Part shown: positions 13,979 to 14,823 of the stretch, piece after piece | How positions within the stretch are numbered: position 1 is the stretch's first letter | Layout of the letters: the number at the start of each line of letters is the position of its first letter | Source: Elusimicrobiota bacterium | Lineage (GTDB): Bacteria; Elusimicrobiota; Elusimicrobia; Elusimicrobiales; UBA9959 | Length of the DNA stretch: 64,000 nucleotides | Assembly (NCBI GenBank): GCA_009773155.1 | Contig: WOVA01000004.1 | Coordinates: forward strand, 38,902 to 102,901 | Direction: 5' to 3' | Program-made: the position numbers and the translations under genes | The notes under the pieces: generated by a model | What the model saw: the letters and a program-made list of their open reading frames with translations, nothing else | What the model was told of the DNA's origin: nothing | Databases searched by the model: none

Positions 13979-14823
13979 TGCACCATGGTCCAGGCGAGGA
14001 AACCGGCGGCCAGTACCCCGGCCAGATGCCAGAGCGGGTTGGGCCAGGCCCAGACGGGGCTGAGGTAGCGCACGGGGTAGACTATCAGGTAGCAGGCCAG
14101 CACGGCCGCGGCCGCGCCGCCGGCGCCGGACAGGAACCAGCGCTTGTCCTTCCTGATGCCCTCCATGAGGCCGGCCGGATCAGGGCGGCTTTGCCCGCAG
14201 TCGGTGCCGGGTGCTCTGCGCCCGGCCGGGGAAAAGCGGTGCAGCAGCACGGTGAGCGAGAACAGCACCGCGCCGAGCAGCGCCAGGCCGAAGGCCAGCG
14301 CTATAAAATTGTCGTAGAAGGAGAAATGCAGGAGGGCGTAGGCCTCCAGCTGCTTATAGCGCACCTCGGCGACGCCGTCCATGCCCCAGAGCAGCTCTGT
14401 CCAGGAATTGAGCGAGCTCAGGATTGACTGGTCCACCGCTATCTCGTAGGAATCCGGCAGCGGGTTGGGGCCCAGCGAGAGGGCGCCTTTTATAAGCTCG
14501 GGGTCCTCTTCGCGCATGCGCGCCAGGCGCTCGCCCTTGGAGATGAAGACCGCGCTCCTGACGCCCTGCAGGGCGCGTATCGACTCCCAGAGGACGTCGC
14601 GTTCCTTGCGGCCGCCGTCCTTGAGCAGGACGACGACGCGGAAATCGTCCTCCAGCATGGCAAGGATCTCCCTCGCCTGCGTATGCATGAAGAGCAGGGC
14701 CTCGAAGAGGACGGCCGCGGTAAAAGCGAGCAAAAAGACCACCCTGTAGCCTTTGCGGCGGGAGGTCTCCGTGGATTGAACATGGTTGTTGGCGTGTTCC
14801 TGCATCTTATTATTATATAACAC
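13960..14823 (-). CDS. ftsX: FtsX-like cell division permease
   Basis: N-terminal TM, FtsX extracellular domain 'VVVLLKDGGRKERDVLWESIRALQGVRSAVFISKGERLARM...PLPDSYEIAV', then TM segments. Likely start ATG 14805 or GTG 14823. Contains element B2. Confidence 0.78.
   Translation of the reverse strand: MLYNNKMQEHANNHVQSTETSRRKGYRVVFLLAFTAAVLFEALLFMHTQAREILAMLEDDFRVVVLLKDGGRKERDVLWESIRALQGVRSAVFISKGERLARMREEDPELIKGALSLGPNPLPDSYEIAVDQSILSSLNSWTELLWGMDGVAEVRYKQLEAYALLHFSFYDNFIALAFGLALLGAVLFSLTVLLHRFSPAGRRAPGTDCGQSRPDPAGLMEGIRKDKRWFLSGAGGAAAAVLACYLIVYPVRYLSPVWAWPNPLWHLAGVLAAGFLAWTMVQWKNSR
14175..14229. repeat. Family B intragenic repeat, copy B2 (in ftsX)
   Basis: GGCCGGATCAGGGCGGCTTTGCCCGCAGTCGGTGCCGGGTGCTCTGCGCCCGGCC; near-identical to 7183-7237. 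Confidence 0.88.

What the first reader, a model, noticed from the sequence alone, without database searches (positions are those of the whole stretch)
14175..14229. Family B: second in-frame intragenic repeat shared by ftsX and a beta-barrel gene
Seen: GGCCGGATCAGGGCGGCTTTGCCCGCAGTCGGTGCCGGGTGCTCTGCGCCCGGCC in ftsX and a near copy at 7183-7237 in an unrelated secreted protein both encode RAPGTDxGQSRPDPA. A third copy (15581-15629) is read in a different frame (AELPAPTAGNAALFQQ), and a fourth in moaA is in opposite orientation. Use of several frames argues for DNA-level mobility rather than a conserved protein motif. In FtsX it falls in the cytoplasmic loop after TM2.
Basis: seen in the sequence. 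Interest (0 to 1): 0.8.

Follow-up and report, generated by a model that had tools for sequence, protein, structure and literature searches.

The report
In-frame double-hairpin jumping DNA element
A 51-base, two-hairpin piece of selfish DNA has spread to over 70 places in this Elusimicrobiota genome, landing inside many housekeeping genes in all six reading frames and always adding a whole number of codons, so the genes stay readable.

Summary
The finding is real and larger than reported. The repeat in ftsX is one of 73 "family B" copies in this draft Elusimicrobiota genome; a reversed-pattern control gives 0. It is a 51-nt insertion: ftsX in three sister species lacks exactly those 51 nt (17 codons), and many other sites show clean empty orthologues. 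By my gene calls, 57 of 73 copies lie inside genes, on both strands and in all six frames. Host genes include CysRS, ArgRS, KdsB, UvrC, HflX, DapF and NuoC.

Family A (51 nt) and family C (48 nt) share the same plan: CGGAWCA, hairpin 1, GGTGC, hairpin 2. Stem 2 shows strong compensatory covariation (one pair is G-C 59, C-G 14, A-T 8: paired in 81 of 81). Copies favour G[C/A]|CGG targets, nest in each other, and form 51-nt tandem arrays inside genes of another genus. The five 50-nt copies found all lie outside genes or at a gene's 3' end.

The mobilising enzyme is unknown: Y1 (RAYT-like) transposase genes are almost universal and not flanked by the element, and RVT_1 is absent from a copy-rich genome. 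Closest kinds: Rickettsia palindromic elements, REPs, mitochondrial double-hairpin elements. New variant of a known kind.

The parts
14176..14226 (+). Family B element (51 nt) inserted in ftsX; on the gene's strand it encodes AGRRAPGTDCGQSRPDP
   Evidence: Exact 51-nt / 17-aa absence in three sister species; R1 hit 71.6 bits
13960..14823 (-). ftsX host gene (287 aa; FtsX_ECD PF18075)
   Evidence: Pfam 2.9e-09; aligned with 7 homologues
7186..7236 (+). Family B element (GCCCG/CGGGC stem variant) in the gene at 6154-7566(-)
   Evidence: R1 74.6 bits; absent in G002 and G003, insertion at GGGC|C
15578..15628 (+). Family B element in the gene at 14866-15873(-), frame AELPAPTAGNAALFQ
   Evidence: R1 73.4 bits; translation
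15696..15747 (-). Family A element in the same gene (14866-15873)
   Evidence: R1 55.1 bits
57071..57173 (-). Family B element inside moaA, split by a 51-nt family A copy
   Evidence: R1 hit spanning a 61-nt insert in the loop; 102 nt absent from G003 moaA
57087..57138 (+). Family A element nested in hairpin 2 of the moaA family B copy
   Evidence: R1 53.7 bits
4335..4383 (-). Family C element (48-nt type) in the gene at 4254-6023(-)
   Evidence: R1 50.7 bits; absent in G003

Best explanation
This is a family of very short, non-autonomous mobile DNA elements. Each copy is 51 nt (families A, B) or 48 nt (family C): a CGGAWCA head, hairpin 1, a GGTGC linker, and hairpin 2 whose 3' foot is the element's 3' end. 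Shown: copies insert cleanly, without a long target duplication, at G[C/A]|CGG-like sites in either orientation, in genes and between genes. Shown: hairpin pairing is maintained by compensatory changes. Shown: the length is a multiple of three in every genic copy examined, so the gene gains 16 or 17 codons. Inferred: insertion is site-driven and frame-blind, and selection then removes copies that shift or stop the frame. Inferred (about 0.4): the mobile form is a hairpinned single strand cut and joined at CGG by an enzyme acting in trans, as in the IS200/IS605-REP world. The enzyme was not found.
For: Copy number: 73 B copies, 35+/38-, control 0. Empty sites: 11 with a length difference of exactly 51, three doublets of exactly 102, moaA 102, and 51 nt the commonest insertion length. 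Six frames, 57 of 73 genic. Against a null from GG[C/A]CGG sites, the -1 frame, which carries TGA in the CGGATCA variant, is depleted 2 vs 13.4 (p 4e-5), and intergenic copies are in excess, 14 of 73 vs 5.6% of sites (p 4e-5). The five 50-nt copies are all intergenic or at a gene's 3' end. Covariation: pos 34-48 G-C 59/C-G 14/A-T 8 and 35-47 G-C 61/C-G 19; 0/500 shuffles reach the score, repeated in another genus. Target preference. Patchy spread: 9 of 149 genomes in the order, all in one family. Only 2 of 19 sister copies share a site with G000. In-frame triple arrays in G013 genes.
Against: No transposition was observed, and all genomes are MAGs. No autonomous relative or cognate enzyme was found. 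Y1 transposases occur in 25 of 26 genomes whether or not the element is present and are not flanked by it. Free energies alone are only modestly better than shuffles for B. The exact junction base is uncertain because CGG occurs at both ends.
Confidence: 0.82

Rival explanations
1. The repeat is a REP-type element mobilised by a RAYT/TIRYT (HUH Y1) transposase of the host.
For: Short hairpins with a conserved 5' head, high copy number, no long TSD, dimers; Y1_Tnp genes in the genome (3) and in G013 (10). REPs inside genes are known (PMC3733652).
Against: Head is CGGA, not GTAG or CGTC. About 50 Y1 loci checked: no flanking element apart from one A copy nested in a GTAG-type REP (L273) and one (L231) in a neighbouring kinase gene. 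Many Y1 genes, including those of the host genome, have GGGGAC-type repeats instead. Presence does not track element copy number.
Confidence: 0.3
2. Spread by recombination or template switching of hairpin DNA (gene-conversion-like), as proposed for mitochondrial GC clusters, without a dedicated enzyme.
For: Nesting, merging and tandem arrays; stem variants occur together with different variants at other positions; no partner gene found.
Against: Constant 51-nt net gain and CGG-centred target look enzymatic.
Confidence: 0.25
3. Spread through an RNA intermediate by a group II intron or other RVT_1 reverse transcriptase.
For: The structure could be that of an RNA; a group II intron match lies in the window.
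Against: G013 (98% complete, at least 99 hits) has no RVT_1 match, nor do G002-G004. Genic copies are in both orientations.
Confidence: 0.06
4. A conserved functional peptide domain shared by proteins.
For: Two window copies encode the same peptide.
Against: Six frames, unrelated hosts, intergenic copies, sister orthologues without it.
Confidence: 0.01

Closest known systems
Rickettsia/Wolbachia palindromic elements (RPE, WPE)
   Same: Palindromic selfish repeats inserted in-frame in unrelated housekeeping genes (PMC10969869, PMC3767692).
   Different: RPEs are about 100-150 bp, each encoding a conserved peptide, and RPE-bearing genes carry the insert at the same locus across rickettsial orthologues (as described in those papers). 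Here 48-51 nt, two hairpins, all six frames, CGG target, mostly unshared sites, tandem arrays, a different phylum.
GTAG/CGTC-tagged REPs and RAYT/TIRYT systems
   Same: Short hairpin repeats with a conserved 5' head; some lie in genes (PMC3733652).
   Different: CGGA head, two hairpins ending flush at the 3' end, 78% genic by my calls, no flanked RAYT.
Mitochondrial double-hairpin elements and yeast GC clusters
   Same: About 40-50-nt GC-rich hairpin elements that merge and spread without a known enzyme (PMC4478555, citing Paquin 2000).
   Different: Those are organellar, and the yeast clusters are mostly intergenic with AG/ACT flanking repeats. Here bacterial chromosome, CGG target, frame-preserving length.
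MITEs
   Same: Non-autonomous, dispersed.
   Different: No real terminal inverted repeats, no clear TSD, far shorter.

Membership tests
REP/RAYT (REPtron) | GTAG or CGTC tetranucleotide at the hairpin foot | tested here: not met
   Head is CGGAWCA in all but a few copies
REP/RAYT (REPtron) | RAYT gene flanked by the repeat in a host genome | tested here: not met
   About 50 Y1 loci from host and relatives searched with R1
REP/RAYT (REPtron) | RAYT binds and cuts the single-stranded repeat | not testable with these tools
   Needs biochemistry
RPE | In-frame intragenic palindromic insertion in unrelated genes | tested here: met
RPE | 100-150 bp unit encoding one conserved peptide | tested here: not met
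   51/48 nt; six frames used
MITE | Terminal inverted repeats plus target site duplication | tested here: not met
   Ends CGGA.../...CCGGC; at most a CGG or single-C direct repeat at the junction
Double-hairpin element / GC cluster | Short unit of two adjacent hairpins, dispersed | tested here: met
Double-hairpin element / GC cluster | Organellar genome, common descent | tested here: not met
   Host is a bacterial chromosome; sequence descent from organellar elements was not searched for
Rfam structured RNA | Match to a described RNA family | tested here: not met
   No match above gathering at the element; best relaxed match livK 19.5 bits against cut-off 65

The most novel reading that the evidence does not exclude
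A bacterial class of frame-neutral selfish DNA: double-hairpin elements whose unit length has been held at a multiple of three so that they can colonise a 92%-coding genome in any frame, moved by a dedicated but undescribed hairpin-DNA recombinase that recognises CGG.
Probability: 0.25. Interest if true: 0.87.

Novelty: new variant of a known kind. Interest (0 to 1): 0.7.

Why it matters
Rickettsial palindromic elements were described in 2000 and, as far as I know, still lack a mechanism. This family is shorter, more numerous, has clean empty sites, a clear target and covarying hairpins, and occurs in a different phylum, so both the mobility mechanism and the tolerance of essential proteins to 17-residue inserts become testable. 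It also shows a route by which new loops enter essential enzymes, and it warns annotators that identical peptides in unrelated proteins can be DNA parasites.

Tried and rejected
Conserved protein motif: rejected (six frames, intergenic copies). Structured RNA in Rfam: no hit. RAYT partner by flanking repeats: not found in about 50 loci; the two apparent cases are an element inside a kinase gene next to a Y1 gene (L231) and an A copy nested in a GTAG-type REP (L273). Reverse transcriptase by phylogenetic profile: absent in copy-rich G013. Translational bypass elements were considered but not needed, because genic copies are stop-free and 3n long. Target choice set by the element's own stem arm: the left flank matches the element end slightly more than shuffled (3.15 vs 2.98 of 5, p 0.002), too weak to claim. 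The first multiple alignment of ftsX mixed strands, but its BLAST rows and one search give the clean result.

Full report
WHAT IS THERE. The ftsX repeat is real and lies at 14176-14226. A covariance model built from copies finds seven copies in the window: three family B (7186, 14176, 15578), two family A (15696 minus strand, 57087), one family C (4335 minus strand), and a family B copy in moaA interrupted by the A copy at 57087. In the whole 2.76-Mb draft genome a 40-nt pattern finds 73 B copies, 35 plus and 38 minus, and the reversed pattern finds none. The model finds 135 hits including A and C types, some overlapping one another on opposite strands. Named records with exact copies are Elusimicrobiota MAGs (UBA11179, Ess09-09, WAS_Bin_5).

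IT WAS INSERTED. In three same-genus genomes ftsX is shorter by exactly 51 nt (one pairwise alignment also carries a 1-nt gap pair). Seven homologues lack the 17 residues AGRRAPGTDCGQSRPDP. Using about 1.2 Mb of sister DNA, I aligned filled and empty sites: 11 show a length difference of exactly 51, and three tandem doublets show exactly 102. In moaA the 102-nt B-plus-A block is missing from the sister. Among all insertions of 15 nt or more against sisters, 51 nt is the commonest length (rows are partly redundant because loci overlap). In the other direction G003 carries a 51-nt A copy inside an orthologous B copy (site 16). Only 2 of 19 sister B copies share a site with G000.

ANATOMY. Consensus of B: CGGAWCAGGGCGGC-NTTNN-CCGCNGTCGGTGCCGGGAGCWCTGCGACCGGC, followed by a near-invariant C. 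A: CGGAACAACGAGCCTCCGGCTCCACAGGTGCCGGGCGCTATATCGCCCGGC. C (48 nt): CGGAACAGCGGCACTGCCGCCCCAGGTGCCGGGAGTTATACGACCGGC. All have head, hairpin 1, GGTGC linker and hairpin 2. In 81 distinct B copies, stem 2 pair 34-48 is G-C 59, C-G 14, A-T 8 with no mismatch, and 35-47 is G-C 61, C-G 19. On the A+B+C alignment no shuffle reaches the covariation score and slid structures lose it. The same holds in another genus, G013. Folding energies agree with the two hairpins but are not extreme for B. The pairing is therefore a property of the nucleic acid, not of a peptide. Pair counts cannot say which strand folds.

TARGET. Flanks of 74 distinct sites show G at -2 (65), C (47) or A (18) at -1, and GG after the terminal C (60 and 45 of 74): the target is G[C/A]|CGG. 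Because CGG occurs at both ends, the cut is known only to within a few bases, and a CGG duplication cannot be separated from a clean insertion in most sites. Elements target one another, which gives nesting and 51-nt tandem arrays.

FRAMES AND SELECTION. A simple codon-usage gene caller puts 57 of 73 B copies inside genes, 2 at gene ends and 14 between genes, in all six frames. It is not a curated annotation, and a stricter local test was sure of only 25 with 13 more probable. Expected frames from GG[C/A]CGG sites in window genes explain the excess of the +2 frame. The -1 frame, where the common CGGATCA variant carries TGA, is depleted (2 observed, 13.4 expected, p 4e-5), and intergenic copies are over-represented (14 of 73 against 5.6% of sites, p 4e-5). 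Five copies are 50 nt long; four are intergenic (one of them judged from weak ORFs only) and one is at a gene's 3' end, where it supplies the stop, whereas genic A, B and C copies are 3n (Fisher p 0.003, counts partly by hand). This fits frame-blind insertion followed by purifying selection. Whether the 51/48-nt lengths themselves were selected is not shown; three families all at 3n suggest it.

HOSTS. Pfam places copies in FtsX, a FabA-like protein, CysRS, ArgRS, KdsB-type cytidylyltransferase, UvrC, HflX, DapF, NuoC, MutS-type, UvrD-type, sigma-54, GATase_5 and Memo/AMMECR1 proteins. In genus g7 (G013) triple in-frame arrays sit in an O-antigen ligase-like protein (RNRAALSAIGAESAANG x3), a radical SAM protein (SQSSRHRLRTMPPCSGR x3) and a DFP-domain protein (PEQGGIARNRCSEHCEL and variants x3), three different frames, and one copy sits in a kinase just after DFG. 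In FtsX the insert falls between TM2 and the next helix; the model there is low-confidence coil.

DISTRIBUTION. The model hits 12 of 59 genomes of the family at E 1e-3 and 9 of 149 in the order at 1e-6, none outside the family. Copy number is patchy between neighbouring genera, as for a mobile element.

MECHANISM. The anatomy (3'-flush hairpin, head before a hairpin, site-specific clean insertion, either orientation, no coding capacity) works like the single-strand HUH world, but membership fails: Y1 genes are in 25 of 26 genomes and carry other repeats. RVT_1 does not fit either. I put 0.4 on a trans-acting single-strand recombinase of any kind, 0.25 on enzyme-free hairpin-driven conversion, and the rest on unknown routes. 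In the rivals list the RAYT/TIRYT reading (0.3) is a part of that 0.4.

KNOWN KINDS. RPEs share the in-frame habit (PMC10969869, PMC3767692). REPs share the hairpin and head (PMC3733652). Mitochondrial GC clusters and double-hairpin elements share size, merging and architecture (PMC4478555). No paper in the searched library joins Elusimicrobia with REPs. I therefore call it a new variant of a known kind.

LIMITS. All genomes are MAGs, E-values of the model are rough, the gene calls are mine, and nothing here shows present-day movement.

Noticed in passing
window 15507-15535, 11187-11213, 26962-26989, 59923-59950: A second dispersed palindrome GGGGACACCATG(CGGC)ATGGTGTCCCC, resembling the GGGGWSAS-type TIRs of TIRYT transposases; family B copies are nested in its loop at several sites (L005, L015, L026).
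   Followed up: partly
window 10280-10371: 28-nt perfect inverted repeats (GGGACGCTGATTACTAAATGACTAATTA) matching the TIRs of a Y1 transposase locus in sister G002 (L257): apparently a transposase-less relic.
   Followed up: partly
window 24222-24353: Inverted repeats CGGGGACGTTGTTTAGTTC..., similar to repeats beside Y1 genes in G013 (L271, L272).
   Followed up: partly
window 14866-15873: One gene without Pfam match has collected a B copy, an A copy and a GGGGACACC palindrome; the sister orthologue is about 146 nt shorter in the compared stretch.
   Followed up: partly
window 62530-62601 (-): Rfam match to the 2dG-II purine riboswitch, just above its gathering score.
   Followed up: no
window 63905-63981 (-): Rfam match to a group II catalytic intron fragment.
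   Followed up: no
window 41896-41938 and 42817-42859; 36154-36192 and 40865-40903: Two pairs of near-identical 39-43-nt direct repeats of unknown nature.
   Followed up: no
L273:1262-1755: In G013 a Y1 transposase gene itself contains GTAG-type REP arrays in frame, and a low-GC family A copy is nested in a GTAG REP just upstream.
   Followed up: partly
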